DNA of 64,000 bases. It comes from an uncultured Lachnospiraceae bacterium. Its GTDB lineage: Bacteria; Bacillota; Clostridia; Lachnospirales; Lachnospiraceae. Shown piece after piece: positions 5,007 to 64,000 of the stretch (position 1 is the first letter of the stretch; each line of letters starts with the position of its first letter). The notes below the pieces were generated by a model. It saw nothing but the letters and a program-made list of their open reading frames with translations. It was not told where the DNA came from and did no database searches. Location of the stretch: the NCBI GenBank assembly GCA_947243855.1, contig CAMXIK010000022.1, positions 1 through 64,000 on the forward strand, read 5' to 3'. A program made the translations under genes and the position numbers.

Positions 5007-8000
5007 ATGATAGTGGACGAGATTTTAGACGGTAAATTTCATGCTGACGACGGCACTCTGGAGTTTTCCTGCCCGCGAGTTACGCTGTCCCTTCAGGCAG
5101 ACACGGCCTGCGAGGGGTCTTTTTTCGTGTACGGACCGGAAGGGGCTTTGACGGAGGGGAAAGTGTCTGCCTCAGACCTTCGCATGGAGTGCGTCTCGAC
5201 ACGCTTTGGCGGCAGTGAGGACGAAATCTTATACCGTTTTCACGCCGACGGCATGGAAGCGGGGGAGGAAGTGACCGGGGCTTTCCATATCATTTCAAAC
5301 AGGGGAGAATACTATCTGCCCTTTGAGGTGAAGGTGGTTTCGGATGAGATCGTTTCCAGCATGGGAGAGATCCGCAATCTGTTCCATTTTACGAATCTGG
5401 CAAGGGAATGTTGGGAAGAGGCGGTGAAGCTTTTTTATTCCCCCGGATTTAAAAAGGTGTTTACCGGCCATGACAGGCAGTATTATGCCGCTTATAAAGG
5501 TCTTTCCGCAGTACCGGGAAACGAGCATAATGTGGAAGAGTTCCTTTTGGAAATTCACAAGAAAAAGCCCGTGGAGTATATTCCGGAGGAACGTGCAGTC
5601 AAAATAGAAGACCCGGTGGAGTCCGTGCGCTATGCCCTTGTGATCAACCGCAACGGCTGGGGGTATACGGGGTTACGGCTGCGCGCGGAGGGAGACTTCA
5701 TCAAGCTGACCGAAGAGTGGGCAGGAGACGACGCCTTTCTGGGGAACCTGTACCGGCTCTATTATGACATAGACATAGAGAAGCTTCATAACGGCTATAA
5801 TTACGGCGCGATTGTGCTGGCGCGGGAGAGCGGGACGGTGAGAGTTCCCGTCACCGTGGTATGGCATGCGGCCGGGGGACTGCTCCTTGGCGCAAAGAGA
5901 GAAAAAAAGCAGCTCATGGTGCAGTTGATGGAATACTATCAGGCGCACCGGTTAAAAAAGATTGGAACGACGACTTGGCTTGCGGAGACGGAGAAACTCC
6001 TCTCCCGCATGGAACAGCTCGACGATCAGGATGTGGCGGTGAAGCTGTTTCGGGCCCAGCTCCTCCTGTCCCAAGAGCGGGGCAACGAGGCCAAGTGGCA
6101 GATTGAAAAACTGAGGGAACGGGTAGGCGCGGAGCGGGAGAAAAATCCGGCGATATGGTGTTATTATCTTTACCTGACCACGCTCATCAGCGAGGAAGAC
6201 TCCTATGTGGATGAGGTGGCGGAGATTGTGGGCAGGATTTACGAGAGGAGACGGGGAGACTGGCGGATCGCATGGCTCCTTTTATACCTTTCCGAGGAGT
6301 ATACGCAGAGCGCTTCCCGCAGATGGATGCTTTTGGAGGAGATGTTTGCCAGCCGCTGTACGTCGCCGATTCTTTATATTGAAGCGTGGAATATTCTCTG
6401 CATGAACCCGGCTATGCTTCGCAAACTGGATCTCTTTGAAGAACAGATATTGACTTTTGCGGTCAAAAACGGAGTGATGCAGGAGGAGGTTTTGTTGCAG
6501 CTCGTGTATCTTGCGGGGCAGAAGCGCGGATATTCCGAGAGTTTGTTCCGGATTTTGAAAGGCTGTTACGAGCAGACGAAGAACAAGGAAGTGCTGCATG
6601 AGATCTGCACGCTGCTGATTAAGGGAAACCGTTACGGAGAGGCGTTTTTTCCGTGGTATCGGGCCGGCGTGGAAGAGAATCTCCGGATCACAAGGCTCTA
6701 TGAATATTATATGATGTCGCTTCCGGCGGATTATGACGGCGAGCTGCCCCGGATTGTGCTTTTGTATTTCGCTTACAAGAGCGATCTGCACTATGCGGTT
6801 ACGGCTTATCTCTACGCCTATGTCCACAAACGCCGGGAGGAGCTGGAGGATATTTATGTAAACTACATGTCGGCCATGGAGCATTTTGTTTTGGAACAGA
6901 TCAAGCGGGGCAGGATTAACCGGGATTTGGCCTATCTTTACGATCATTTTGTGGAACTTGCCATGATTGATGAACAGACCGCAAGGTCTTTGGTGTCCCT
7001 GCTTTTTATGCGGGAAGTCCGGACGCAGAGCGAGGAGGCCAAGGAGGTTATCTTATCCTATTCCAGCCGAACGGATAGTAAGCGTTTCCCGATCACGGAG
7101 GGGCGGGCGTATGTGCCGGTTTATGAGAGCGGCTGTAAGGTGCTTCTGGGGGACGGAGAGGGAAACTGTTTTACACAGAGTATCGATTATACGGTGGAGG
7201 AGCTGATGAATCCGGTCAGGCTTTCTCTTATGATCGCGCCTTTTGTGAGAAATCATCTTGGCTATGCGGTCTATGCCTGTTACGAATACCAGCATACCTT
7301 TGCGGTGCAGGAGGACAATGCGGATCTCTTCGTGCTATTGTCGGCCTCGGAGAGAATCGAGGAGGAGGAAAAGCGAAAGATTCGTCCTATGGTGCTGGAT
7401 TTCTTCTATGAAAAGGACAGGATGCGGGAGCTGGACGAATATCTGTTGTCCCTGAAGCCGGAAAACGTGGGCCGTAAGGACAGAGGCAAGGTAGTGCGCC
7501 TGTTGGTGAACCGCGGCATGTACGAGGAAGCGCTGGAATGGGTTAGATTGTTCGGGCCTTACGATATCGACGCAAAGATATTATTGAAGCTGGGCAGCAG
7601 GCTTTTGGAATTGAAGGAGACAGAGGACGATCCTCTGATGACCGGGATGCTCTTTTATGTGGTGCAGAAAGGCAAATACGATGACAATGTGCTGCATTAT
7701 CTGATACAATGGTTTTCTGGAACCATCAAGGAAATGCGGGATGTGTGGCGTATCGCAGAGTCCTTCGGTGTGGACGCTTTTAAACTATGCGAGCGGATGC
7801 TTGTGCAGATGCTCTACACGGGAGCCCACGTGGGGGAGAAGCTGGAGATCCTTCGCTCCTACAGCAAAAGCGGGGGCAGCGAGAGAATCCGGGCGGCCTT
7901 TGTGTCCGCCTGTTGTTACGATTATGTGGTGAAGGAAGAAATCACGGATTCCTATGTGTTTGAGAGCGTAAGACAACTGTATCAGGAGGAGGCTCCCCTG

Positions 8001-53410: not shown

Positions 53411-54727
53411 ATGGTTATGATAAAAACGGATATGAAAGATATACTGACGGGATTGGATCGATATGAAGTTTTTCTGGAAAAGCTGGAAAAAGAGATTGAA
53501 AATGTCGGCGACGACCGCATTGTGATTATCTATACGGATATTAAGCATTTTAAATATATCAATGACACCTATGGTTATAAGGTGGGAGATTCTCTTCTGA
53601 GAGACTTTGTCAATGAATTTATGAAGCAGGAAGCGGTTATTCTCTGCGCCGCAAGGGTGTATTCCGATAATTTTGTCACAGCCGGCAGACTTCCGGGGAA
53701 TGGCCTGAGCAATGAAGAGTTTCGTGATCTCATTTACCAGTTGAATCTGGAGCGTGAGATGAAGTTTCGGGAGAAATATTTAAACAGCAGGCTGCAGTTT
53801 TGTACCGGAATCAGCGTGATTGATAAGAACAGCAGAAGTCTTGATGCGGAGACAGCGGTTTCAAACGCGAATCTGGCAAGGAAAGTGGCCAAGGAGATGG
53901 AAGAAGACTGCTGCGTCCTGTTTGACCAGAGTATGATGGAGGGAATCAGGCGGGAGGTTGAAATCACGTCCAGTATTCCCAAGGCGCTTTCCCAGAGGGA
54001 GTTTCAGGTTTATTTCCAGCCGAAGATCGACACCGATACGCTTGCGTTGATCGGTGCGGAGGCTTTGGTTCGCTGGCAGAAAACTGACGGCACTTTTGTA
54101 TATCCAGACGAGTTTATTCCCTTGATCGAGCGCAGCGGACAGATTGTGGAGGTAGACTACTATGTGTACCGGGAAGTGTTCCGTTTCTTGGCGGAGCGTT
54201 TGAGAGAGGGCAAACGGGTGGTGCCCGTTTCCGTAAACGTGTCCCGGGTGCATTTAAACAGAATGCACATTTTAGAGTACGTGAAAGGATTAATGGAAGA
54301 GTTTCAGGTGCCCTGTTCCCTTGTGGAATTTGAGCTGACGGAAAGCATTTATCTGGAAAATACGGAACGCGCGTTGGAATTGATAAAAGGTTTACATAAA
54401 ATGGGATTTAAGATTTCGATGGACGATTTTGGTTCCGGTTATTCTTCCCTGAATTTGCTCAGTAAGCTGCCCATTGATATCATTAAGCTGGACAGGGTTT
54501 TTTTGAAAGAGGGAGAGATGCAGGAGAATGACAGAATTATTATTTCCTGTGTCGTGGATATGGCGAAGAGATTGAAAATTACTTCTCTGTGCGAGGGTGT
54601 GGAAACGCTGGAACAGTGTAATTACCTGAAAGAAGTGGGCTGCCAGATGCAGCAGGGTTTTTATTTTTCAAGGCCCATTCCGCAGGAGGTTTTTGAAAAA
54701 CTTCTGGAGGAAGACGCGGAAGGATAA
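53411..54727 (+). CDS. Cyclic di-GMP phosphodiesterase (degenerate GGDEF plus EAL)
   Basis: 438 aa, no membrane segment. The first domain (about 10-165) is a GGDEF fold in which the catalytic GG(D/E)EF is replaced by VYSDNF, so it cannot make c-di-GMP but may bind GTP. The EAL domain (about 185-435) looks active: GAEALVRW (about 215), the metal-ligand Asn in SVNVSRVHL, Glu in FELTESI, the Asp pair in MDDFGSGYSSL, Lys in IDIIKLDRVFL and Glu in CEGVETLEQ. It hydrolyses c-di-GMP made by enzymes such as the 33.3-kb GGDEF protein. GGGGAG precedes the ATG. Confidence 0.93.
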   Translation: MVMIKTDMKDILTGLDRYEVFLEKLEKEIENVGDDRIVIIYTDIKHFKYINDTYGYKVGDSLLRDFVNEFMKQEAVILCAARVYSDNFVTAGRLPGNGLSNEEFRDLIYQLNLEREMKFREKYLNSRLQFCTGISVIDKNSRSLDAETAVSNANLARKVAKEMEEDCCVLFDQSMMEGIRREVEITSSIPKALSQREFQVYFQPKIDTDTLALIGAEALVRWQKTDGTFVYPDEFIPLIERSGQIVEVDYYVYREVFRFLAERLREGKRVVPVSVNVSRVHLNRMHILEYVKGLMEEFQVPCSLVEFELTESIYLENTERALELIKGLHKMGFKISMDDFGSGYSSLNLLSKLPIDIIKLDRVFLKEGEMQENDRIIISCVVDMAKRLKITSLCEGVETLEQCNYLKEVGCQMQQGFYFSRPIPQEVFEKLLEEDAEG

Positions 54728-54765
54728 ATCACATTGAAATGACCGAAAAAGTTTTGAGATAAGGC

Positions 54766-54794
54766 TTGCATTTCCCGAGTGAATTCGTTATAAT
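54766..54794 (+). promoter_or_regulatory. Promoter of tRNA-Pro
   Basis: TTGCAT, 17 bp, TATAAT, 13 bp before the tRNA. Confidence 0.8.
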
Positions 54795-54807
54795 AGTATT
54801 TGTTTTT

Positions 54808-54880
54808 CGGGGTGTGGCTCAGGTGGTAGAGCGCTACTTTAGGGAAGTAGAGGCCGCAAGTTCAAGTCTTGTCACTCCGA
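54808..54880 (+). tRNA. tRNA-Pro(AGG)
   Basis: A full cloverleaf: acceptor CGGGGTG/CACTCCG (one G-T pair), D arm GCTC/GAGC, anticodon stem CTACT/AGTAG with loop TTAGGGA, and T arm GCAAG/CTTGT with TTCAAGT. The anticodon at 54841-54843 is AGG, reading CCU. C1-G72 and A73 are the bacterial proline identity bases. The CCA end is not encoded (TCG follows). A34 is unusual for a bacterial tRNA-Pro, where GGG, TGG and CGG are normal. The 3' end is duplicated downstream. Confidence 0.9.
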
Positions 54881-54882
54881 TC
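54869..54882 (+). repeat. Attachment-like repeat in the tRNA 3' end (copy 1)
   Basis: TTGTCACTCCGATC, covering part of the T arm and the whole 3' acceptor strand. Exact copy at 55648-55661. Confidence 0.75.
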
Positions 54883-54891
54883 GGGAAAATA

Positions 54892-54931
54892 CCTGATAAT
54901 CGCAGAGTTTTGTGGTTATCAGGGTTTTTTT
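54892..54931 (+). terminator. Terminator after tRNA-Pro
   Basis: CCTGATAA and TTATCAGG form an 8-bp stem, followed by seven T's. Confidence 0.8.
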
Positions 54932-54994
54932 AGATATACTATAAATAATATGGGTAAAAATTTTTGTATAACATAAAACCATAAGGAGGTCTAA

Positions 54995-55216
54995 ATGTTA
55001 GCGACAGTAAAAGGCTATTATAATGGAAATCATATTGTAATCAGTGAAAATGTGAATTTGAATATTGGGCAGGAAGTGATGATAACAATACTTGATACGG
55101 AAAGTGTTCCTAAAAAGAAAATTGATTTGAAGAAATACATGGGCAAAGGTGAGAAAATGTTTCAGACTGACGCACAGGATTATATTAAGGAGATGAGAAG
55201 CGATGAGCGGATATAA
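54995..55216 (+). CDS. Putative antitoxin of the second PIN pair
   Basis: 73 aa. The start MLATVKGYYNGNHIVISENV followed by GQEVMITILD is the short beta-barrel-like head seen in antitoxins paired with PIN proteins. The C-terminal half (KKKIDLKKYMGKGEKMF) would wrap the toxin. AAGGAGG precedes the ATG; it overlaps the toxin by 14 bp. It lies between the two copies of the tRNA end. Confidence 0.75.
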   Translation: MLATVKGYYNGNHIVISENVNLNIGQEVMITILDTESVPKKKIDLKKYMGKGEKMFQTDAQDYIKEMRSDERI

Positions 55217-55640
55217 ACGGATTTTTTTAGATACTGCACCGCTGATTTATTTCCTTGATGAAGATATAAACTATGCGGAAAGAATGGAACAGATTTTTCA
55301 AAAAATCCTTGAAAAAAAGAGATTGTTATTGACATCAGCGATTACTTGTACAGAATATCTCACGGTTCCATACAGAACCCAAAATACAGAAAAGGCTGAT
55401 ATATTTTTTGAGTTTTTGTCAGATTGCAATGTGCAAATTCATGCAATTGATGTGAATATAGCTAAAAAGGCGGCTAAAATTCGAGCCAGATATAAAGACT
55501 TTAAGACAATGGATTGTTTACAGTTGGCAACCGCCTGTTTCGCGGAATGCGATTTGTTCCTTACCAATGACAGACAGTTGCGTCAGTTTGATGAAATGAA
55601 ATGTTCTACGGTTGAAGAAATAGTGATAGAAGATATTTAG
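55203..55640 (+). CDS. PIN-domain toxin (putative RNase)
   Basis: 145 aa. The four acidic positions are present: IFLDTAPLIYFLD (first Asp about 9), Glu in TCTEYLTVPY, Asp in FKTMDCLQLATA and Asp in FLTNDRQLRQF. It is translationally coupled to the antitoxin just upstream. The stop is 8 bp before the duplicated tRNA end. VapC-like toxins of this group often cut tRNA or rRNA; the target here is unknown. Confidence 0.9.
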   Translation: MSGYKRIFLDTAPLIYFLDEDINYAERMEQIFQKILEKKRLLLTSAITCTEYLTVPYRTQNTEKADIFFEFLSDCNVQIHAIDVNIAKKAAKIRARYKDFKTMDCLQLATACFAECDLFLTNDRQLRQFDEMKCSTVEEIVIEDI

Positions 55641-55647
55641 AGAAACG

Positions 55648-55661
55648 TTGTCACTCCGATC
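55648..55661 (+). repeat. Attachment-like repeat (copy 2)
   Basis: TTGTCACTCCGATC, identical to the tRNA-Pro 3' end 779 bp upstream; 35 bp before the 3' end of the integrase gene. Confidence 0.75.
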
Positions 55662-55667
55662 AGAAAC

Positions 55668-55690
55668 TGGGCAGTCCATTGGACTGCCCA
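55668..55690 (+). terminator. Terminator between the PIN toxin and the integrase
   Basis: TGGGCAGTCC-att-GGACTGCCCA, a perfect 10-bp stem followed by TTCGTTTTA. It separates the two convergent genes. Confidence 0.75.
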
Positions 55691-55696
55691 TTCGTT

Positions 55697-56617
55697 TTAT
55701 ATCAGAAAATCTTTTCGGGGATGCTTCGTGGCAAGGATGTTTCGCTGCTTCGCCACAGTGACATGGGTATAGATTTCCGTAATGTTGATAGAACTGTGTC
55801 CCAACATTTCCTGAATATAGCGGATATCCACATCCGCCTCCAAAAGACTTGTCGCAAAGGTATGGCGGAACATATGCGGCGTTATGTGCTGGTCTATGGA
55901 GGCAAGCGCGGTATATTTGTTGATCATCCTGCGCACCGATTGGTCAGACAGCGCTTTTCCCGATTGGTTCACGAAAAAATGATTGCTGGATCGTATTTCC
56001 GCATGAAAGGCGGATTTGTATTTGGCAAGAATCTGGAGCACGGATTCGGTGCCGATTTGAATGCGGCGTTCCTTGCTGCCTTTTCCATAGATAAGGATTG
56101 TGCCGTCGTATAAATTCACGTCGCCAATTTTCAGAGAGCAGAGTTCCGATATTCTCATGCCAGTGGCAAATAATAATTCGGATACGGCGGCGTCTCTCAA
56201 GGCGTTTCGTTTTTGATAAGCGGTTCCGGCGCTTTTTTCTTGATCGTATATGGTAGACAAAAATAATTCGATCGTAGGAAGAGGGATGGTTTTGGGTAGG
56301 ATAACAGGTTCACGGAAGCGAATCAGAATTTTGTTAAAGGGATTCTGTTCAATGATTTCCCTGTATTCGAGATAATGGAAGAAGGCTTTGACAGAGGCTA
56401 TTTTGCGCTTCACGGTTTTAGGCTTATACTGCTCATGCAGCCGAACGATATACTGTTCCAATGAGGCGGAGGTTACGGCAGCGATATCGATATCCGGATT
56501 CTGCCCGGCAAACTGCCGTAGGTCGATCCGGTATGCCTTGAGCGTTTTTTCGTCGAGGCATTTTTGAAAGCGGCAGTATTCTAGATAGTTTTTGGTGCAT
56601 TCGTTTACTGTGTCCAT
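55697..56617 (-). CDS. Tyrosine recombinase/integrase
   Basis: 306 aa XerC/D-like site-specific recombinase. A SAM-like core-binding domain (about 1-95) is followed by the catalytic domain. Catalytic residues are all visible: Arg in ATGMRISELCSL (about 154), Lys in YGKGSKERRI, His-x-x-Arg in HMFRHTFATS (about 249), His in LGHSSINIT and the nucleophile Tyr in EIYTHV (about 289). AAAGGAGA precedes the ATG. Its 3' end faces the duplicated tRNA-Pro end, the classic integrase-beside-att layout. It could equally be a housekeeping Xer-type protein, but the tRNA repeat favours an island integrase. Confidence 0.9.
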   Translation of the reverse strand: MDTVNECTKNYLEYCRFQKCLDEKTLKAYRIDLRQFAGQNPDIDIAAVTSASLEQYIVRLHEQYKPKTVKRKIASVKAFFHYLEYREIIEQNPFNKILIRFREPVILPKTIPLPTIELFLSTIYDQEKSAGTAYQKRNALRDAAVSELLFATGMRISELCSLKIGDVNLYDGTILIYGKGSKERRIQIGTESVLQILAKYKSAFHAEIRSSNHFFVNQSGKALSDQSVRRMINKYTALASIDQHITPHMFRHTFATSLLEADVDIRYIQEMLGHSSINITEIYTHVTVAKQRNILATKHPRKDFLI

Positions 56618-56738
56618 GGTCTGAATCTCCTTTGTGTTTTTACATATCGTATCTCAATTTTGCAAAAAAGGGAAAAGTATATTTTTTAGGGATAAGCTTT
56701 GTTTTGGTAAATTCATCAGCAGATACTGAATATTTTCA

Positions 56739-56767
56739 TTGACACTGGGGTATCCTTTGAATATAAT
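56739..56767 (+). promoter_or_regulatory. Perfect consensus promoter of the YefM-YoeB pair
   Basis: TTGACA, 17 bp, TATAAT. An imperfect palindrome beginning GTACAGAAATA and ending AATATGTAC (about 56772-56799) right after it is a plausible antitoxin operator. Confidence 0.8.
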
Positions 56768-56828
56768 ACAAGTACAGAAATAAATACACAAATATGTACG
56801 TTTTTAGAAAAAGGGAGGGACATAAGCC

Positions 56829-57086
56829 ATGTTAGCGGTAAAATCTGTAAATGTTCGGGATAATTTCAAAGAATGGTGTGATAAAATCAGCATGGGCGAA
56901 ACCGTTGTTATTTCAAGACCAAGAAATGAAAATATCTACATGATAAATGAAGCCGAATATAACGCCTTGCAGAAAGCAAAGCGAAACGCTGAATATCGTG
57001 CTATGCTGGATAAATCGGATGAAGAATTGAAAGCCGGAAAAGTAGTAATTAAGACTATGGAAGAATTGGAAGCTATGGAGAATTGA
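56829..57086 (+). CDS. yefM: YefM/Phd-family antitoxin
   Basis: 85 aa. MLAVKSVNVRDNFKEWCDKI and the following GETVVISRPRNENIYMINEA are the standard Phd/YefM N-terminal DNA-binding fold; the helical tail (about 55-85) wraps the toxin. AGGGAGG precedes the ATG. It lies 4 bp before the YoeB-like toxin and would repress the shared promoter. Confidence 0.92.
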   Translation: MLAVKSVNVRDNFKEWCDKISMGETVVISRPRNENIYMINEAEYNALQKAKRNAEYRAMLDKSDEELKAGKVVIKTMEELEAMEN

Positions 57087-57090
57087 AATT

Positions 57091-57354
57091 ATGAATGTCT
57101 TATTTACTGATACCGGTTGGAATCAATACACAGAATGGCAGGGGCAAGATAAAAAGATTGTAAAACGAATAAATCAGCTGCTAAAGAGCATAGACCGAGA
57201 CGGAGCAATGGAGGGTATAGGAAAGCCGGAACGATTAAAGTATGATAAATTAGGGCTATATAGCAGACGGATAGACGAAGCAAACCGCCTTGTATATGAA
57301 ATGTCCGATAATCAAATAATTGTGAAATCCTGCAAAGGGCATTATGAAGATTAA
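57091..57354 (+). CDS. yoeB: YoeB-like ribosome-dependent mRNA endonuclease toxin
   Basis: 87 aa of the RelE/YoeB fold. GIGKPERLKY (about 46-55) holds the family Glu, YSRRIDEANRLVYEM the active Arg, and CKGHYED the C-terminal His and Tyr. The usual HRLVY is NRLVY here, a change next to the active site. It is coupled to the antitoxin. It cuts mRNA at the ribosomal A site during translation when freed. Confidence 0.92.
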   Translation: MNVLFTDTGWNQYTEWQGQDKKIVKRINQLLKSIDRDGAMEGIGKPERLKYDKLGLYSRRIDEANRLVYEMSDNQIIVKSCKGHYED

Positions 57355-57381
57355 AGAATGGGAAGTTGACAAAGGGTACTT

Positions 57382-57415
57382 GACTGAAGGCTAGTGAAAG
57401 CTTTCAGTCTTTTGT
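57382..57415 (+). terminator. Terminator after yoeB
   Basis: GACTGAAGGCT and AGCTTTCAGTC form an 11-bp stem with one G-T pair; TTTTG follows. Confidence 0.75.
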
Positions 57416-57473
57416 TTGTGGGATAACAAGAATAGATTTTATTCCTATTGATAAAGGAGATTTCGTTGGAGGA

Positions 57474-57707
57474 ATGCCCGATGATGAAACGAAAGAACTT
57501 TACGATTTCAGGATAAGGCTTTTAGATGAGCATGTGATTGTGATAAGTCATGGTGCTTTTATGCAGTTGATGAAAAATATTAAGACAATTTATGAAGGGA
57601 AGTTTGAGACATTGATCATAGATAAACAGTTAGTAATTAAAGTTTTTGACGGTGATATTATAGAAATTGATGGAGAGGTTGATGGGGTAGATATTTATGG
57701 AAAATAG
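57474..57707 (+). CDS. Small protein of unknown function, possibly 5'-truncated
   Basis: 77 aa with a hydrophobic beta pattern (HVIVISHGAFMQLM, TLIIDKQLVIKVFDGDIIEI), faintly like the YabP/YqfC fold. GGAGGA abuts the ATG with no spacing, while the frame stays open upstream and reads like protein (FIPIDKGDFVGG) until a stop near 57380. Either translation starts at an unusual codon or the gene has lost its start. Confidence 0.4.
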   Translation: MPDDETKELYDFRIRLLDEHVIVISHGAFMQLMKNIKTIYEGKFETLIIDKQLVIKVFDGDIIEIDGEVDGVDIYGK

Positions 57708-57712
57708 CAGGG

Positions 57713-57862
57713 CTTTTGTACAACAAAGGGATCATCAAGGACAGATCAAGCATTGAAGAATCAAACAACACGATGGCGCTGCATAAGAAATTTGACTCCG
57801 AGGATAGGGAAGAACGAAAAAAGATTCTGAGAAGATTTGAAAGAGGAGAATTGACGGAGTAG
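57713..57862 (+). pseudogene. C-terminal gene fragment
   Basis: A frame with no plausible start reads LLYNKGIIKDRSSIEESNN, then FDSEDREERKKILRRFERG and a stop at 57860-57862. It has protein-like composition and ends just before a terminator, so it is probably the tail of a lost gene. No family recognised. The remaining 57910-58076 stretch holds no gene; a TATGAT box near 57981 may be the operon's -10. Confidence 0.35.
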
Positions 57863-57874
57863 AATCATGACAGG

Positions 57875-57909
57875 GCGGAAAGCGAATGAAAGCTTTCCGT
57901 TCTTTTTTT
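57875..57909 (+). terminator. Intrinsic terminator
   Basis: GCGGAAAGC and GCTTTCCGT pair over 9 bp (one G-T) and are followed by seven T's. Confidence 0.85.
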
Positions 57910-58076
57910 ACGCCGGAAAGGAAATTTTTACATTGAATTTAGGAAAAATTACAAGTTGCGTATAGGGAGCCTTTTTTGTTGTATGATGTCATAAAAGGTC
58001 AAATAGGAAATAGAAATGAGCAGGATGCGGGATAGATAATTTTGCTGTAATTGTTTATAGGGGAAGGAAAAGAAAT

Positions 58077-59753
58077 ATGGATGAGCGTATAGGTGATTTT
58101 ATCAAAGTCGGAGAGATACAAGTATCCTGTAATGTTCCGCTTGGAGAACTGAAAGAACTTTCTATCAGGGAGCGGATCGGCGCGCACACGGCTGTGGAAG
58201 TTGTGGCCGGTATTGAGCCCGGAAGCGTTAATGTTGCAAGCCTGCAGGCGGCCGGACAACCGTTAAAAATTACGGCGTATCAGACAGATCGGAAAATACT
58301 GCTTTTTTATGGAGTGATAGGACAGCTTTTTATAGAACAAGAAGCGGCCTATGAAAAGATACGGATCAAGGCGTATTCCCTGTCATGGCTTTTGGATCTT
58401 GAAAAGAAGAGCCGGTCATTTCAGGGACAAACGTCTATTGCAGGGCTTATCCGTAAAATCAGCAAGGAACAGTCGTTTTCTCTTTTAGATGCGGCGCAGG
58501 ACAAAGCGACGGAAGCCCCCTTTATTCAGTACAAAGAAACAGATTGGGAATTTATGAAAAGACTTTCCACGCATCTGGGGGTTATGCTTTATGCGGCAAA
58601 TGACTACGAGGGACAAGGACTGTATGTGGGACTTCAGGAGCAGGAGACGCATTTAAAGGCGGAACCGTTATACGAAAAATGGTGTATGAATGAAGAGCGC
58701 CTTAAGCTGGTAAATTTTGATATAAAAAAAGCGGCTTATTATGAAATTTTGACAGGGCAGGTTTTCCATATCGGACAGGGTATTGGGTATAGAAACGGAA
58801 TCGCATGGCCTTTTTCAGTAGATATTGTCTTACGGGAAGGTGTGTTACACTGTGTCTCAAAATTGGCGGGGAAGGAGTATCATATACCGGACATAGCGTA
58901 CAATCCGCATGTGAAGGGCGTATCTTTGACAGGCAGGGTACTTAAACGGGAAGCGGAATTGATCAAGGTTCATCTGGATATCGATGAAGAACAGGAAATC
59001 GGGAGCGCGTATTACTATCCATGGATGCCGGAACATGGAAACATGGTTTATTGTATGCCAGAAGAAGGAAACGTAATAAGACTGGCCATATCAGGAATCG
59101 ACGAGAGAGGGGCTATCGGCGTTGATTGTATCAGGACAAACGGCAGCTCTTGCGGGGAGACGCAGACACCTCAAAACCGTTGGTTTTCCACGGCACATGA
59201 TAAAAAAATGACACTACAGCCGTCTATGATGGAATTAACCGGTAAGGAGGCTGGCTCCAAGATTTCGTTGATGGACAGTACAGGAGAAAGCATGATAAGC
59301 GATGGGAATATTGTGATTCAAGCCGGAGGAACGGTTGTTATTCAGGCGGCAAAAATGAATCTGAGTGCACCCGGAGAGATTACGGCAATCAAAAGAGAAT
59401 TGGGAGAACCAGCGGTAATCAATCTCTGCTATAATCTGGACGCCATGGGAAAACAGACCGTATTTCATAATTTGGAAAAATTATCATTAAAGAGCGTTCC
59501 CAAAGGCGGGAGCACAGGAGAAAATGGTTCGGGCTCCTCCGTTGAGGAGACAGAGGGACAAAAGGAGAAAAGAGAGAAACTGCTCTTTAAAATGCAGGAG
59601 CTTTTGGAGCAGGAGAAGGAGAAAAACAGCTATCAGTTGGGAAGACATATTGTAAATGTGATTTCTTCTATCCCGCAATGTGCAGAACAGGAAGAACTGG
59701 CCCGTGCTGTTATGGGGATGCGGCCGATTTTTGGAAGAATGAAGGGAGAATGA
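58077..59753 (+). CDS. VgrG-like spike protein 1 (phage gpD / gp27-gp5 type)
   Basis: 558 aa. Residues about 20-330 resemble the gp27-like ring of phage late-control D and VgrG proteins; YKETDWEFMKRLSTHLGVML (about 152-171) is the hallmark block. A gp5-type OB fold follows (about 300-370, HGNMVYCMPEEGNVIRLAIS), then a beta-helical needle (about 385-445, DGNIVIQAGGTVVIQAAKMN). A helical extension (about 475-558) with a long coiled coil is absent from the second copy and could recruit cargo. GGAAGG precedes the ATG. It opens a tight eight-gene operon. In Gram-negative bacteria such trimers tip secretion and phage needles. Confidence 0.85.
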   Translation: MDERIGDFIKVGEIQVSCNVPLGELKELSIRERIGAHTAVEVVAGIEPGSVNVASLQAAGQPLKITAYQTDRKILLFYGVIGQLFIEQEAAYEKIRIKAYSLSWLLDLEKKSRSFQGQTSIAGLIRKISKEQSFSLLDAAQDKATEAPFIQYKETDWEFMKRLSTHLGVMLYAANDYEGQGLYVGLQEQETHLKAEPLYEKWCMNEERLKLVNFDIKKAAYYEILTGQVFHIGQGIGYRNGIAWPFSVDIVLREGVLHCVSKLAGKEYHIPDIAYNPHVKGVSLTGRVLKREAELIKVHLDIDEEQEIGSAYYYPWMPEHGNMVYCMPEEGNVIRLAISGIDERGAIGVDCIRTNGSSCGETQTPQNRWFSTAHDKKMTLQPSMMELTGKEAGSKISLMDSTGESMISDGNIVIQAGGTVVIQAAKMNLSAPGEITAIKRELGEPAVINLCYNLDAMGKQTVFHNLEKLSLKSVPKGGSTGENGSGSSVEETEGQKEKREKLLFKMQELLEQEKEKNSYQLGRHIVNVISSIPQCAEQEELARAVMGMRPIFGRMKGE

Positions 59754-59754
59754 A

Positions 59755-59994
59755 ATGGCGGATTCAGTTATAAATGGGGCGATAGGAAAGAGTCCGGTCA
59801 TTGATAAAATGAATCAATTGTCTGCCAATGAAGCAAAAAATAAGGCAGCAGACCAGATGGCGCAGCATGTATGCAGCCATGGAGGAGTCAGGTATCCTTC
59901 TACCCCAATCTCCTTTCAGTGGTGTGGAAAGGAGATAGAAGCGTTGATGGCGGAACGAAAGAAAGGAAGAAAGAGAGAAGATGTTTCTGTTTGA
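59755..59994 (+). CDS. Small protein of the spike operon, unknown
   Basis: 79 aa: an N-terminal helix (INGAIGKSPVIDKMNQLSAN), then VCSHGGVRYPSTPISFQWCG with a Cys-x-His and a later Cys, and a basic tail. It starts 2 bp after the VgrG-like stop and overlaps the next gene by 14 bp. No family recognised; the Cys/His pattern could bind metal. Confidence 0.65.
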   Translation: MADSVINGAIGKSPVIDKMNQLSANEAKNKAADQMAQHVCSHGGVRYPSTPISFQWCGKEIEALMAERKKGRKREDVSV

Positions 59995-60481
59995 CGAACA
60001 GTTGTATGTGGATATGCCTGAATCCTATCAGGAGATGAGTCAAGCTAGGATAGACGAGATATATCCCTATGAGGTGAGACAAGAGATTATATTGGAAAAT
60101 GCGCAGACAGGCAGTTTTTGTACCTTTTCCCTGTTTGAGGATCAGGGAATCATGGGCAGTCAGGTAGAATATGCGATCCATTCTGTTTCTAAGATCGTAA
60201 CAAGACTGTATCCGTCCTGTATCGTGGACAAGGAACAGATCATGAACTGTTCGGAATCCTTCTGCGGTTGGTTTTCCTTTGAGACAAGGACATCAGATGG
60301 AAAGCTATATAATGTGATGTACATTTTTCCGGTAAATGGGCACATGATGTTTGGTACGATGGGCTGCAGGATGGAAGAGGAACGGGAAAAAGAGCTGCTG
60401 ATGGGCATTATGAAATCCCTAAAGGCGCAGAAAAAGAAAAGAAGATTGCAGGAAGGGTATGAAACGAGAAGACTTTGTTGA
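59981..60481 (+). CDS. DcrB/EagR-like protein 1 (putative spike-cargo chaperone)
   Basis: 166 aa, alpha/beta. Alternating strands (VRQEIILENAQTGSFCTFSL, LYNVMYIFPVNGHMMFGTMG) with a final helix (EKELLMGIMKSLKA) fit the DcrB/DUF1795 fold, whose EagR members load effectors onto VgrG spikes in type VI systems. No signal peptide, so cytoplasmic. It overlaps both neighbours (14 and 23 bp). Assignment is by fold pattern and context; sequence identity looks low. Confidence 0.6.
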   Translation: MFLFDEQLYVDMPESYQEMSQARIDEIYPYEVRQEIILENAQTGSFCTFSLFEDQGIMGSQVEYAIHSVSKIVTRLYPSCIVDKEQIMNCSESFCGWFSFETRTSDGKLYNVMYIFPVNGHMMFGTMGCRMEEEREKELLMGIMKSLKAQKKKRRLQEGYETRRLC

Positions 60482-61064
60482 TGTAAAAATAATACAACTA
60501 CAGGAAATCTATCAGAATATGGCGGCAGAGTACGATCTGCTTGTGGACGAAATACCGATTCATAGACAAAAAGTACGTTTTCGGTATCTGCCTTTGTTTG
60601 ATGAAACATTTTGTATGTTAATACCGGAGAATTTTGCGTCGATGCCGGAGGAGGCTGCCAAGGCCAGATATATCAGCCGCTATCGGCCGCCTGTTATTTT
60701 GACCGGGCCGGGGTATGATGAAAATTTTGGTTTTCATCTGTTGGAAAACGAGAAGGGGGAATTAAGCCGTCTGATCGGACAAATGAAAGAAACGGTCAAA
60801 CGCCATGCGCCGGAAACCATATTTTATGAGGAAGGAATGGTTATGTCGGCTGATATGGAAGGCTGCTGGTTTGATTATAAGAATTTCACATTGGATGAGG
60901 AAACCTATAATATGCAGTTTCTCGTGCGGTCGGACAGTAAATTGTTGGCTGGTACGTTTAATTGCAGGATGCGTTTTTATGATATGTGGAAACCGTTAGT
61001 TCTGCAATCACTTAGTTTCGTGAAATCAGGAAAAAAGGGGAGGACATCAGATGAAGGCGAATAA
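60459..61064 (+). CDS. DcrB/EagR-like protein 2 (putative spike-cargo chaperone)
   Basis: 201 aa; longer relative of the preceding protein, with FCMLIPENFASMPEEAAKAR, then YRPPVILTGPGYDENFGFHL (the RP-x-x-I-L pattern common in DcrB-like folds) and a closing strand-helix WKPLVLQSLSFVKSG. It lies immediately before the second VgrG-like gene, overlapping it by 14 bp. A chaperone role is inferred. Confidence 0.6.
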   Translation: MKREDFVDVKIIQLQEIYQNMAAEYDLLVDEIPIHRQKVRFRYLPLFDETFCMLIPENFASMPEEAAKARYISRYRPPVILTGPGYDENFGFHLLENEKGELSRLIGQMKETVKRHAPETIFYEEGMVMSADMEGCWFDYKNFTLDEETYNMQFLVRSDSKLLAGTFNCRMRFYDMWKPLVLQSLSFVKSGKKGRTSDEGE

Positions 61065-62445
61065 AATTCAGGTATCTTATTTTCATTATGTGGCAATCAC
61101 AGAATTGACGATAGACCAGAAGATCGGAGAACATGCCGAGGCACGGGTCCGGGGGAGTATTCAGGATAAAGATGTCGAGGAATACAAAAGGCTGTTGACA
61201 GAAAAAATCTGGGTTACCATCAGCGGACAGGACGAAAACGGTGAGAACAGGATATTAATGACAGGTGTGATCGCGGGTTTTTCATTGGAGTGTCTTCAAC
61301 ATATCTACACATTGGAATTGCGGATCAAGAGCGGCACTTACCTGATGGACGGCAGGAGACATTTTCGCTCTTTCCAGAATCAGTCCGCCACTTATCTTGA
61401 CGTGATGGAGCTGATTAATCAGACCTATGGGGAGGCGGGCGTTATGGCGCAGGACAATGTGAGCGCCTCGGTGGACTTTTTGTTACAGTACCGGGAAACA
61501 GACTGGGAATTTATCAAGCGCGTGGCCAGCCGGTTTGGGTTAGCGGTGACGCCGGAATCAGCAAGGGAGGGCGTATTTTATTATGTAGGCAATTTACAGT
61601 ATGCCTCTTATGAGACAGAGGAAATACTGGACTGCCAAAGCGGTAAATTGGTGGATGCTTTTATGCAGAATGGGGCAAACGGGACTGGCTCCCTGAAAGA
61701 ACTTGATTATATAGAATATAGATTGTCTACAAGAGAAGTTTACCGTCTGTGGGATTTTTTGACAGCAAAGGGACAGAGCGGCCACATATACCGTATCCAT
61801 AGCGAATTGAAACAGGGAGAGATGATACATACTTACTGGCTGCGTTCGGCGGGCGGGCTCAGAGTGCTGCAAAGCTTCGATGAATGCCGGCAGGGATGTT
61901 CCTTTGAGGCGGAGATCAAGGCGGTCGCGCAGGATAAAGTGCAGATTGCGCTGATCGGGGATGAAAACGCCGGACAGCATATCACCAGATGGTTTCCTTA
62001 TTCCACGGGTTATTCTTCTCCTGATGGCGCCGGATGGTACTGTATGCCGGAAGTAGGGGACAGGGTGCGCCTACAGATCCCAGATGCGGCGGAAGAAAGC
62101 GGCTATGTGATCAGCGCGGTACATATGGATACGGATAATGGCCGTAAAATACCGGATCACAAATCTTTTAAGACCCAATATGGAAAGGAACTTCTCTTTA
62201 CGCCGGACAGTCTGGAGCTTACTAACAATAAGGGAATGTCGGTCAAGATTGTGGACGGGGACGGAATACAGATTGTAAGTGATAAGAATATCACCATTGT
62301 GGCAGGAGGCAGCATGACTATTTCCAGTCTGGAAGATTCCCTGATTGTGGCGGGGACAGAGAATGTGGATATCAGACAGAGCGGCGCTGGGCTGCATATG
62401 GCGGAGGACATTGTGTTTACCGGAGGAAAATTCAGAATTCAATGA
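61051..62445 (+). CDS. VgrG-like spike protein 2
   Basis: 464 aa, same order as copy 1: gp27-like part (about 1-290) with YRETDWEFIKRVASRFGLAV (about 150), an OB fold (DGAGWYCMPEVGDRVRLQIP, about 327) and a short beta-needle (DKNITIVAGGSMTISSLEDS) ending at FRIQ with no C-terminal extension. The two copies are clearly diverged, so this is not a recent duplication. Stop and next start overlap by 4 bp. Confidence 0.87.
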   Translation: MKANKIQVSYFHYVAITELTIDQKIGEHAEARVRGSIQDKDVEEYKRLLTEKIWVTISGQDENGENRILMTGVIAGFSLECLQHIYTLELRIKSGTYLMDGRRHFRSFQNQSATYLDVMELINQTYGEAGVMAQDNVSASVDFLLQYRETDWEFIKRVASRFGLAVTPESAREGVFYYVGNLQYASYETEEILDCQSGKLVDAFMQNGANGTGSLKELDYIEYRLSTREVYRLWDFLTAKGQSGHIYRIHSELKQGEMIHTYWLRSAGGLRVLQSFDECRQGCSFEAEIKAVAQDKVQIALIGDENAGQHITRWFPYSTGYSSPDGAGWYCMPEVGDRVRLQIPDAAEESGYVISAVHMDTDNGRKIPDHKSFKTQYGKELLFTPDSLELTNNKGMSVKIVDGDGIQIVSDKNITIVAGGSMTISSLEDSLIVAGTENVDIRQSGAGLHMAEDIVFTGGKFRIQ

Positions 62446-63071
62446 GCGACCGTGAAGAAAAGTTGATCAAGACCGTGGAACACCTGATTCCAGAAATATG
62501 GCAAAAAAGCAGTTTGGAAACCGAAAGATTCTGTAAGGAAAGAAGCAGGGAACTAGCGGAAAGCTTTCTTACGGCGATAGAGCAGGGACTTCAGCAGATA
62601 ATTCACAATGCCGGGCCGGAGGGTTTGGGACAGATCAAGTATCTTCTCTTTTCCAGTCTGCACAGCAGTATTTTCTTAAAAAAATATCTTGTGCAGATTG
62701 CGTTTATGGAACAGGAATTATATTTGAAAGAGCCGTTAGCGGAAGTATATTGGGACGCTGGGGATATCTACCGATTGTTTGAGCGGGATGTCGAAAGTAT
62801 TCAGAGGGGAATGGCGTTCAAAATTCCAAGGATAAGAAGCTATGAGACGGATGAGATTCGCTATCTCTATGCGCCTTATTATCATGGCATGGTAAAGGCG
62901 TTCATCGAGGAAATGACAGCAGGGATAGTGGGAAACCCTGAAATATCAACAGATAAGGAAGAAAAGGAGCAGGTTATGATCCTGTTTGGGGAATATATGG
63001 GAGAAGCGGATATTTTATGTCGGGTAGAGAGGGACAAGATGAATGAGATATTTCAGGATATATGCGGATGA
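62442..63071 (+). CDS. Unknown protein of the spike operon
   Basis: 209 aa, soluble, largely helical. Conserved-looking blocks are LFSSLHSSIFLKKYLVQIAF, YWDAGDIYRLFERDVESIQ and RYLYAPYYHGMVKAFIEEM. No family recognised. It sits between the second VgrG-like gene and the imm11-like gene and overlaps both (4 and 29 bp). It may be an adaptor or cofactor of the spike; this is context only. Confidence 0.65.
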   Translation: MSDREEKLIKTVEHLIPEIWQKSSLETERFCKERSRELAESFLTAIEQGLQQIIHNAGPEGLGQIKYLLFSSLHSSIFLKKYLVQIAFMEQELYLKEPLAEVYWDAGDIYRLFERDVESIQRGMAFKIPRIRSYETDEIRYLYAPYYHGMVKAFIEEMTAGIVGNPEISTDKEEKEQVMILFGEYMGEADILCRVERDKMNEIFQDICG

Positions 63072-63567
63072 ACGGCATTTACAGCCCCGTATTTTGAAGC
63101 GTGAGACCTTGATAAGACCACATATTCAGGAACAGGGATTCATCTATGAGGAACTGGAGCAGAGAAACTACCTGAAAGTCGAACTGGATCGTGAGATTGC
63201 ATTTTTGGATATCATGAACAGCCCGATTTTTATGGTGACGAAAGAGTTTGCCAATCTGATTAGAGTCTACTGTCCGGCGGTTAAATTCAAATATATGATT
63301 CTCTTTGATGAGGCAAATCGAAGAGCAGTATCCTATCAGATACCAGCGCTTCCGGAAATCGACTGCCTGCATAGTGACAGCGAATTGAGCAGGGACGGAA
63401 ATACGATAACGAGAGGAATCCTCTGCGGGGATAAAATAGGAAACACCCCCATATTCAGACTGAAAGGCGCAAAGGGACGTTACATTATGGCAAACCTTGC
63501 TTTTGTGGAGAGCGTATACCGGCGGGAGGTCAGGGGTATGGGGATAGAGGAATTTGTGGTACAATAG
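63043..63567 (+). CDS. imm11/DUF1629-like protein
   Basis: 174 aa. AFLDIMNSPIFMVTKEFANL, YQIPALPEIDCLHSDSEL, IGNTPIFRLKGAKGRYIMAN and a final RREVRGMGIEEF match the imm11-like pattern I recall, a family often beside polymorphic toxins and VgrG/DUF4280 genes in Firmicutes. It might be an immunity protein or a delivery cofactor. The start at 63043 lies inside the previous gene (29-bp overlap). Confidence 0.6.
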   Translation: MRYFRIYADERHLQPRILKRETLIRPHIQEQGFIYEELEQRNYLKVELDREIAFLDIMNSPIFMVTKEFANLIRVYCPAVKFKYMILFDEANRRAVSYQIPALPEIDCLHSDSELSRDGNTITRGILCGDKIGNTPIFRLKGAKGRYIMANLAFVESVYRREVRGMGIEEFVVQ

Positions 63568-63578
63568 GAGGTGCTGGT

Positions 63579-64000
63579 ATGGATCTTTGGTCAGATTTTA
63601 TAGGTTGGATTACAGGGGAAGCGGAAAAACCGGCGGAGCCCTTGGTATTAGGCGCAGAACTTAAGTGCCCGTGGGGAACAGCACACAGTTACTTATATGT
63701 GGATTCAGATGATATTGATATCAATAACTTGCCGCAGGCGCATGTGGAAGACTGTATGGCGAATTATAACATCTACCCTTTTGGTAAGTGTATATATCGG
63801 ATGGGACAACCGTGTGAATTGTTTTTTTGTTTGGCAGACCGCTGGGAAAATTCAGAACCGCAGAATGTGATTGTGAATGGAAGGGAGATTATCACTACAA
63901 AATCTACACTCATATGTCAAACAAGTGGCACAGAAATAAGAGCAGTGACAACAGGGCAGGATGCATTATATGCAAAAGAATTGATGTTATATAAAGACAT
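63579..64000 (+). CDS. DUF4280 (PAAR-like) protein, cut by the window end
   Basis: The first 140 codons only. After a short start (MDLWSDFIGWITGEAEKP) comes VLGAELKCPWGTAHSYL, then CMANYNIYPFGKCIYRMG, INGREIITTKSTLIC-like strands and CQTSGTEIRAVTTGQ; this is the DUF4280 fold, a PAAR-like cone that caps VgrG spikes. It often carries a toxin after the cone, so the missing C-terminus matters. AGGAGG lies 8 nt before the ATG, which follows the imm11-like stop by 12 bp. Confidence 0.85.
   Translation, partial: MDLWSDFIGWITGEAEKPAEPLVLGAELKCPWGTAHSYLYVDSDDIDINNLPQAHVEDCMANYNIYPFGKCIYRMGQPCELFFCLADRWENSEPQNVIVNGREIITTKSTLICQTSGTEIRAVTTGQDALYAKELMLYKD

What the first reader, a model, noticed from the sequence alone, without database searches (positions are those of the whole stretch)
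58077..64000. Spike-and-chaperone operon resembling a contractile-injection tip in a Gram-positive genome
Eight overlapping genes encode two diverged VgrG-like spikes, two DcrB/EagR-like proteins, a DUF4280 PAAR-like cap, an imm11-like protein and two proteins I cannot place. Seen: gp27 hallmark blocks, OB folds and beta-needles in both spikes, and tight overlaps. Known: VgrG, EagR and PAAR parts work together in type VI systems. Inference: a Firmicute delivers cargo with a needle tip. No sheath, tube, baseplate or ClpV-type gene is visible, so it is either the edge of a larger locus or an orphan tip using another machine.
Basis: partly seen in the sequence, partly recalled or inferred. Interest (0 to 1): 0.8.

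Follow-up and report, generated by a model that had tools for sequence, protein, structure and literature searches.

The report
Detached tip of Gram-positive injection machine
This bacterium carries a set of genes for the spike tip and toxic cargo of a syringe-like machine whose probable body is encoded elsewhere in the same genome, which may explain how Gram-positive bacteria use spike genes that had no known machine.

Summary
Two labels (DcrB/EagR, Imm11) are not supported by profile searches of the window proteins.

A candidate machine exists. Two other contigs of the same genome encode a conserved cluster: a 720-aa probable sheath, Hcp-like tubes, a baseplate-fold protein, an Hsp70/actin-like ATPase, DnaJ, FHA and PP2C proteins, and spikes. 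Relatives of the 720-aa protein occur in Lachnospiraceae, Clostridium, Paenibacillus and others; none was found in phage or viral collections. In two relatives, orthologues of the window operon sit 27-29 bp downstream of this cluster; here the operon lies on another contig.

Best reading: a detached, cargo-swapping tip module of a T6SS-like contractile system of Bacillota. TssM, Phage_sheath_1 and Pvc16 were not found, so I file it neither as T6SS nor as eCIS. Sheath identity rests on weak structural evidence; firing is untested. A 2021 paper only speculated about such a machine; ten searches of an open library, several narrow, listed no description.

The parts
58077..59753 (+). VgrG1, 558 aa: gp27-type spike with a C-terminal extension
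   Evidence: Phage_GPD 4.8e-8; VI_Rhs_Vgr 2.8e-8, under its cut-off; 52-85% identical to orthologues in five relatives
59755..59994 (+). 79-aa protein of unknown role, conserved in place
   Evidence: 45-74% identical in five relatives; 37-aa match to a C3 protein, 1.9e-4
59981..60481 (+).
   Evidence: family A9; 46-89% identical in five relatives; DcrB not supported
60459..61064 (+). 201-aa paralogue of the preceding protein
   Evidence: family A9; 27-31% identical to three C3 proteins; 56-89% in five relatives
61051..62445 (+). VgrG2, 464 aa: second gp27-type spike with weak OB domain match
   Evidence: Phage_GPD 1.2e-11; 63-92% identical in five relatives; Ka/Ks 0.06-0.08
62442..63071 (+). 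p209, adaptor candidate; aligns with the N-terminal part of the pentapeptide protein beside the C45 spikes
   Evidence: 45-83% identical in five relatives
63043..63567 (+). 174-aa 'Imm11-like' protein next to the cap gene; more likely an adaptor than immunity (inference from its place)
   Evidence: family A10; 59-89% identical in five relatives, one of them cut
63579..64000 (+). DUF4280 (PAAR-like) cap fused to a variable C-terminal cargo, 434 aa; cut by the window, ends at contig position 64883
   Evidence: DUF4280 1.1e-14; C-terminal part differs between relatives
57872..57903 (+). terminator-like hairpin upstream of the operon
   Evidence: 12-pair stem, then T run
58011..58040 (+). weak sigma-70-like site before VgrG1
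   Evidence: 9 of 12 matches; 2 sites found against 1.1 expected in shuffles, so not significant

Best explanation
The operon is a detached tip-and-cargo module of a T6SS-like contractile injection machine of Bacillota. Shown here: the spikes and cap; a conserved machine cluster elsewhere in the genome; the orthologous tip module directly behind that cluster in two relatives; an exchangeable cargo end. Inferred: VgrG1 and VgrG2 form the spike; the two A9-family proteins, p209 and the Imm11-like protein load cargo; the DUF4280 cap carries the toxin; the set replaces or joins the tip of the machine encoded on C3 or C45, which is held at the membrane through membrane FHA, PP2C and vWA proteins; sheath contraction drives tube and tip into a neighbouring cell; genes after the effector protect the producer. 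The Hsp70/actin-like ATPase, with DnaJ, may do the recycling job of ClpV.
Confidence: 0.75

Rival explanations
1. Same parts, but the machine is a released, lysis-dependent particle (eCIS-like) instead of a membrane-held one.
For: The same family does carry eCIS: Pvc16_N in 14 of 150. No TssM in this genome.
Against: No Phage_sheath_1 or Pvc16_N match in this genome. The cluster encodes proteins with membrane-like helices and FHA or PP2C domains.
Confidence: 0.2
2. The 720-aa protein is not a contractile sheath; tube and spike work without contraction.
For: No sequence-level sheath match; low-confidence model.
Confidence: 0.12
3. The window operon is a degenerate leftover that no machine uses.
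For: It lies on a separate contig from both machine clusters; the contig ends soon after it.
Against: The eight reading frames are intact; Ka/Ks 0.06-0.23 in 13 of 15 comparisons; conserved as a module in five relatives.
Confidence: 0.08
4. It is part of a prophage tail or tailocin.
For: gp27-type spikes are shared with phages; weak PHROG tail hits of the spikes, 3.7e-5 and 0.034.
Against: Sheath and VgrG2 have no match in 50,697 phage records at E<=0.01; a pattern-led scan of viral contigs confirmed 0 relatives of the sheath; sheath, tube, p428, p250, p209, Imm11-like and effector have no PHROG hit at E<=0.1.
Confidence: 0.03

Closest known systems
Type VI secretion system (subtypes i-iii)
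   Same: VgrG-type spikes, PAAR-like cap, probable Hcp tube and TssC-like sheath, baseplate-fold protein, FHA/PP2C proteins as in some T6SS (recalled), detached spike-effector modules (recalled)
   Different: Bacillota host; no TssM match in the genome; no ClpV among 19 C45 proteins; probable sheath is one 720-aa protein without Pfam match; adds Hsp70/actin-like ATPase and DnaJ
Extracellular contractile injection system (Afp/PVC type)
   Same: VgrG/Pvc8-like spike, DUF4280 cap; marker co-resident in 4 of the 10 genomes of the family sample that have the 720-aa gene
   Different: No Phage_sheath_1 and no Pvc16_N match in this genome
PAAR_H2 (DUF4280) spikes of Gram-positive Firmicutes (PMC8651086)
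   Same: Phage_GPD spikes next to DUF4280 genes without eCIS/T6SS genes nearby; very likely the same kind of object (that the window cap is of subtype H2 was not tested)
   Different: [quoted passage not shown] here a candidate machine is named and linked
Francisella IglG (DUF4280 cap of an atypical T6SS)
   Same: PAAR-like DUF4280 cap; weak IglG match of the window protein, 0.0061, far under cut-off
   Different: No fused C-terminal toxin (recalled); different machine and host

Membership tests
Type VI secretion system | VgrG spike | tested here: met
   Phage_GPD above cut-off in both spikes; solved VgrG 1.3e-17 by profile; NCBIfam VgrG models under cut-off
Type VI secretion system | PAAR or PAAR-like cap | tested here: met
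   DUF4280 1.1e-14
Type VI secretion system | Hcp tube | tested here: inconclusive
   25 of 29 hit TssD at E<=1, best 9.9e-5, the two C45 copies under cut-off; PDB profile 0.92; hhalign 0.28
Type VI secretion system | TssB/TssC sheath | tested here: inconclusive
   [not shown]
Type VI secretion system | baseplate subunit of the TssK/F/G complex | tested here: met
   [not shown]
Type VI secretion system | TssM (IcmF) membrane complex | tested here: not met
   PF06761: no match at E<=10 in the own genome, 98.5% complete
Type VI secretion system | ClpV recycling ATPase in the cluster | tested here: not met
   19 C45 proteins scanned at E<=1, no ClpV; C3 and the rest of the genome were not tested for it
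Extracellular contractile injection system | Phage_sheath_1 sheath | tested here: not met
   PF04984: no match at E<=10 in the own genome
Extracellular contractile injection system | Pvc16/Afp16 (DUF4255) protein | tested here: not met
   PF14065: no match in G000 at E<=0.001
Prophage tail or tailocin | relatives of its structural proteins in phages | tested here: not met
   PHROGs only weak hits of the spikes
Prophage tail or tailocin | capsid and terminase genes nearby | not tested
   no capsid family was searched
Detached spike-effector module | tip genes without machine genes beside them, and a related machine elsewhere in the genome | tested here: met
   no machine-profile match among 64 window ORFs outside the operon; 720-aa gene only on C3 and C45; draft assembly, contig end 2.3 kb after the effector

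The most novel reading that the evidence does not exclude
A distinct class of contractile injection machine, mostly of single-membrane Bacillota, defined by a single-chain 720-aa sheath, a two-VgrG tip, phospho-signalling parts (FHA, PP2C) and an Hsp70/actin-like ATPase with DnaJ in place of ClpV and TssM. It fires from inside the cell through a Gram-positive wall and uses detached, cargo-swapping tip modules such as the window operon.
Probability: 0.58. Interest if true: 0.93.

Novelty: new variant of a known kind. Interest (0 to 1): 0.85.

Why it matters
In a 2021 survey DUF4280-type PAAR_H2 proteins made up over 10% of PAAR homologues, and no machine could be assigned to them (PMC8651086, passages). 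Here every DUF4280 genome of the family sample (19 of 19) and 18 of 19 of the phylum sample carries the 720-aa gene, an eCIS marker, or both. That turns an open question into a testable one: do ordinary Gram-positives such as Lachnospiraceae and Paenibacillus fire a T6SS-like weapon at neighbours, and how would it cross their thick wall?

Tried and rejected
Prophage or tailocin: rejected. eCIS in the same genome: rejected. DcrB/EagR label: not supported. Naming p250 and p257 by PDB profile or Pfam: failed (the p250 hits, 4.8e-9 and 2.5e-8, are to pentatricopeptide repeat proteins over about 37 residues, taken as spurious). Naming the C-terminal cargo of the window effector: no convincing match (best 0.0093 to a viral capsid chain, taken as chance). 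TssB/TssC/Hcp profile comparison: nothing significant in 21 pairs; the best was sheath set A1 against TssB, E 0.021, and a 131-column collinear stretch with TssC had E 0.72. Foldseek with the sheath model: 0 hits at E<=0.001. For p428 the viral library gave 0 hits at E<=0.001. PADLOC: one weak hit of the ATPase, 6.9e-4. Paper searches. Searches asked for all terms and returned none, one search was about TssK, and one search matched 11,577 papers of which 15 were listed, so this is thin evidence of absence. The library holds no preprints and few subscription papers.

Rows dropped or capped: sheath alignment A2 holds 63 of 77 usable rows of 80 loci; A3 29 rows thinned from 111; A8 42 rows of 50 thinned from 61. 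Only the best 80 of 340 stretches were returned. In one search TssB could be taken from 10 of 12 loci; the Hcp set leaves out two rows, one annotated tssE and one judged so by eye. In one search 30 of 80 loci were given, and the output was cut at 150 listed places. Spikes away from any sheath gene were listed in 17 of 30 genomes, but only 4 of these (G551, G558, G575, G576) show them on the same contig; for the other 13 they lie on other contigs, where an assembly break is possible. Of the twelve regions, ten are the family's DUF4280-only genomes; 6 of those 10 show a sheath-like PGVY motif (the motif is recalled), while all 10 have Pvc16_N. 7 of the 14 Pvc16_N genomes of the phylum sample have no DUF4280 match. 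The Fisher tests take no account of shared ancestry.
Full report
What is there. A named relative whose 720-aa protein is identical is an uncultured Lachnospiraceae bacterium (L066), so I take the family to be Lachnospiraceae. From 58077 eight + strand genes follow each other with spacings of -29 to +11 bp, each with a Shine-Dalgarno-like sequence by a loose pattern. Both spikes match Phage_GPD above its curated cut-off (4.8e-8, 1.2e-11) and the last gene matches DUF4280 at 1.1e-14. A profile of nine own-genome VgrGs finds solved VgrG (1.3e-17), Pvc8 and Afp8. Past the window the effector ends at contig position 64883, followed by a 124-aa gene, a 190-aa fragment with a TNT domain at 3.3e-19 and a 146-aa gene. 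A 140-bp stretch of the effector is repeated in the fragment at 93% identity, as in orphan toxin cassettes of other polymorphic toxins (recalled). Outside the operon none of the 64 window ORFs taken matches the machine or tip profiles.

Where the machine is. DUF4280 rings in three contigs of the genome: C22, C3 and C45. C45 encodes in order, read on its - strand: a 720-aa protein, two tube candidates, DnaJ, a membrane FHA protein, a zinc-type FHA protein, PP2C, membrane PP2C-TPR, an 832-aa protein, p428, p250, p257, an A9-family protein, two VgrGs, a pentapeptide protein, an Imm11-like protein, DUF4280 and a VgrG-Rhs-like protein cut by the contig end. C3 holds a second cluster with one tube gene, four VgrGs and several DUF4280 genes; p257 was not found there. 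In a search limited to the fetched C3 and C45 proteins, seven of the eight window proteins have their best relative in C3; the effector gave no hit at 1e-3.

How common it is. A scan of the collection of 84,980 species genomes confirmed 340 stretches encoding relatives of the 720-aa protein; the best 80 lie in Lachnospiraceae, Clostridium, Paenibacillus, Brevibacillus, Pelosinus, Propionispira and others, at 63% identity or more. Gene clusters recur in these 80 loci, as lower bounds because flanks are cut: 720-aa 80, PP2C 79, tube 75, ATPase 74, zinc FHA 72, p428 69, vWA 66, membrane FHA 64, p250 63, DnaJ 50, p257 26. A distant member (G068) shows the 720-aa protein, tube, VgrG, p428, p250, ATPase and p257 but no FHA, PP2C or DnaJ in the 20 kb seen, which suggests a minimal core. 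No relative of the 720-aa protein was confirmed in viral contigs or found in phages or plasmids.

The window operon belongs to this machine. A search with the operon DNA over 19 machine genomes found matches at E<=0.001 in 15, five of them long: G577 (87% over 5.5 kb), G579, G585, G581, G582; the rest are short. In G585 (contig CAMXBD010000028.1) the whole set VgrG1, p79, both A9-family proteins, VgrG2, p209, Imm11-like and DUF4280-effector follows p257 at 29 bp. In G579 (contig DLAF01000033.1) the set from VgrG1 follows a 504-aa frame matched by p257 at 27 bp, and the contig ends inside the Imm11-like gene. VgrG2 is 69% and 79% identical to the window copy. In G581 and G582 the about 2 kb in view upstream of VgrG1 hold no machine gene; in G577 the contig ends 116 bases upstream of it, so its setting is unknown. 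Ka/Ks is 0.06-0.23 in 13 of 15 comparisons with G577, G579 and G585; two were saturated.

The cargo is exchangeable. The 86.6% DNA match with G577 runs from base 11 to base 5519 of the operon and stops 17 bases into the effector gene. Protein identity of four relatives' effectors falls from 0.44-0.62 in the first 150 residues to 0.09-0.24 in the last 84. The G585 effector ends in a ribonuclease domain (PF00545, 9.3e-12). The window effector's own end has no convincing match.

Co-occurrence. In 150 family genomes the 720-aa protein occurs in 10 and DUF4280 in 19, both in 9. All 10 DUF4280-only genomes carry the eCIS marker Pvc16_N; of the other 9, four carry both and five (this genome included) only the 720-aa gene, so 19 of 19 are accounted for. 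In 398 phylum genomes the numbers are 13, 19 and 12; six of the seven others carry Pvc16_N and one (G267, 81% complete) carries neither. Against the reading: G084 and G529 have the 720-aa protein without a DUF4280 match. Fisher p is 1e-8 and 2e-17, without correction for shared ancestry. In 30 of 30 machine genomes tested a spike lies within 50 kb of the 720-aa gene (median 15.2 kb); 17 have listed spikes away from it, 4 of them on the same contig and 13 only on other contigs. A Paenibacillus polymyxa plasmid carries a spike module without listed machine genes beside it.

Mechanism. By a simple hydropathy scan none of the eight proteins of the window operon shows a membrane helix, while membrane FHA, PP2C, PP2C-TPR and vWA proteins of the machine do. 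The simplest reading is a tip built in the cytoplasm and mounted on a membrane-held contractile tube. How it would cross a Gram-positive wall is unknown; no step of assembly or firing has been tested.

What is known. [quoted passage not shown] A 2012 survey lists Firmicutes in its T6SS row of toxin carriers (PMC3482391, passages only). PMC10215855 was used only to find a T6SS locus (passages). The ten paper searches (limits under Tried and rejected) listed no description of the machine; papers seen only in listings are not relied on. Because TssM and the eCIS markers were tested and not met, I do not file it as T6SS or eCIS; it probably works like one of them.

Noticed in passing
window 54000-64000: G+C drops from about 0.50 to 0.39-0.45 from tRNA-Pro (54807-54882) to the operon, with a tyrosine-recombinase-like gene (55697-56617, family recalled) and two toxin-antitoxin-like pairs (54995-55640, recalled; 56829-57354, antitoxin PhdYeFM 3e-6, under cut-off): looks like an acquired island.
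   Followed up: partly
L007:8378-8950 (contig C22 65377-65949): TNT-domain fragment after the effector, sharing a 140-bp, 93% identical stretch with it: an orphan toxin cassette.
   Followed up: partly
L203:1669-3183: In G579 a single 504-aa open frame, matched by p257, stands where p250 and p257 are expected: a fusion, or a sequence error.
   Followed up: no
L143 (Lacrimispora xylanisolvens, G575): The 720-aa gene matches in two overlapping pieces in different open frames in this record.
   Followed up: no
L010:4601-6925: The vWA gene beside the C3 cluster is fused to an AgrB-type membrane domain (3.4e-36), hinting at peptide signalling in control of the machine.
   Followed up: no
L170:11220-20159: Paenibacillus polymyxa plasmid p-YT9A carries a spike module with pentapeptide, spike, DUF4280 and a long spike-type gene next to a nuclease fragment.
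   Followed up: no
G016, G022, G054, G149: Four family genomes carry both the 720-aa gene and the eCIS marker Pvc16_N.
   Followed up: no
L009:14234-16146 and L011:15937-17844: Paired FHA proteins (one membrane, one zinc-type) beside PP2C; no kinase among the 19 C45 proteins scanned, so the partner kinase is unknown.
   Followed up: no
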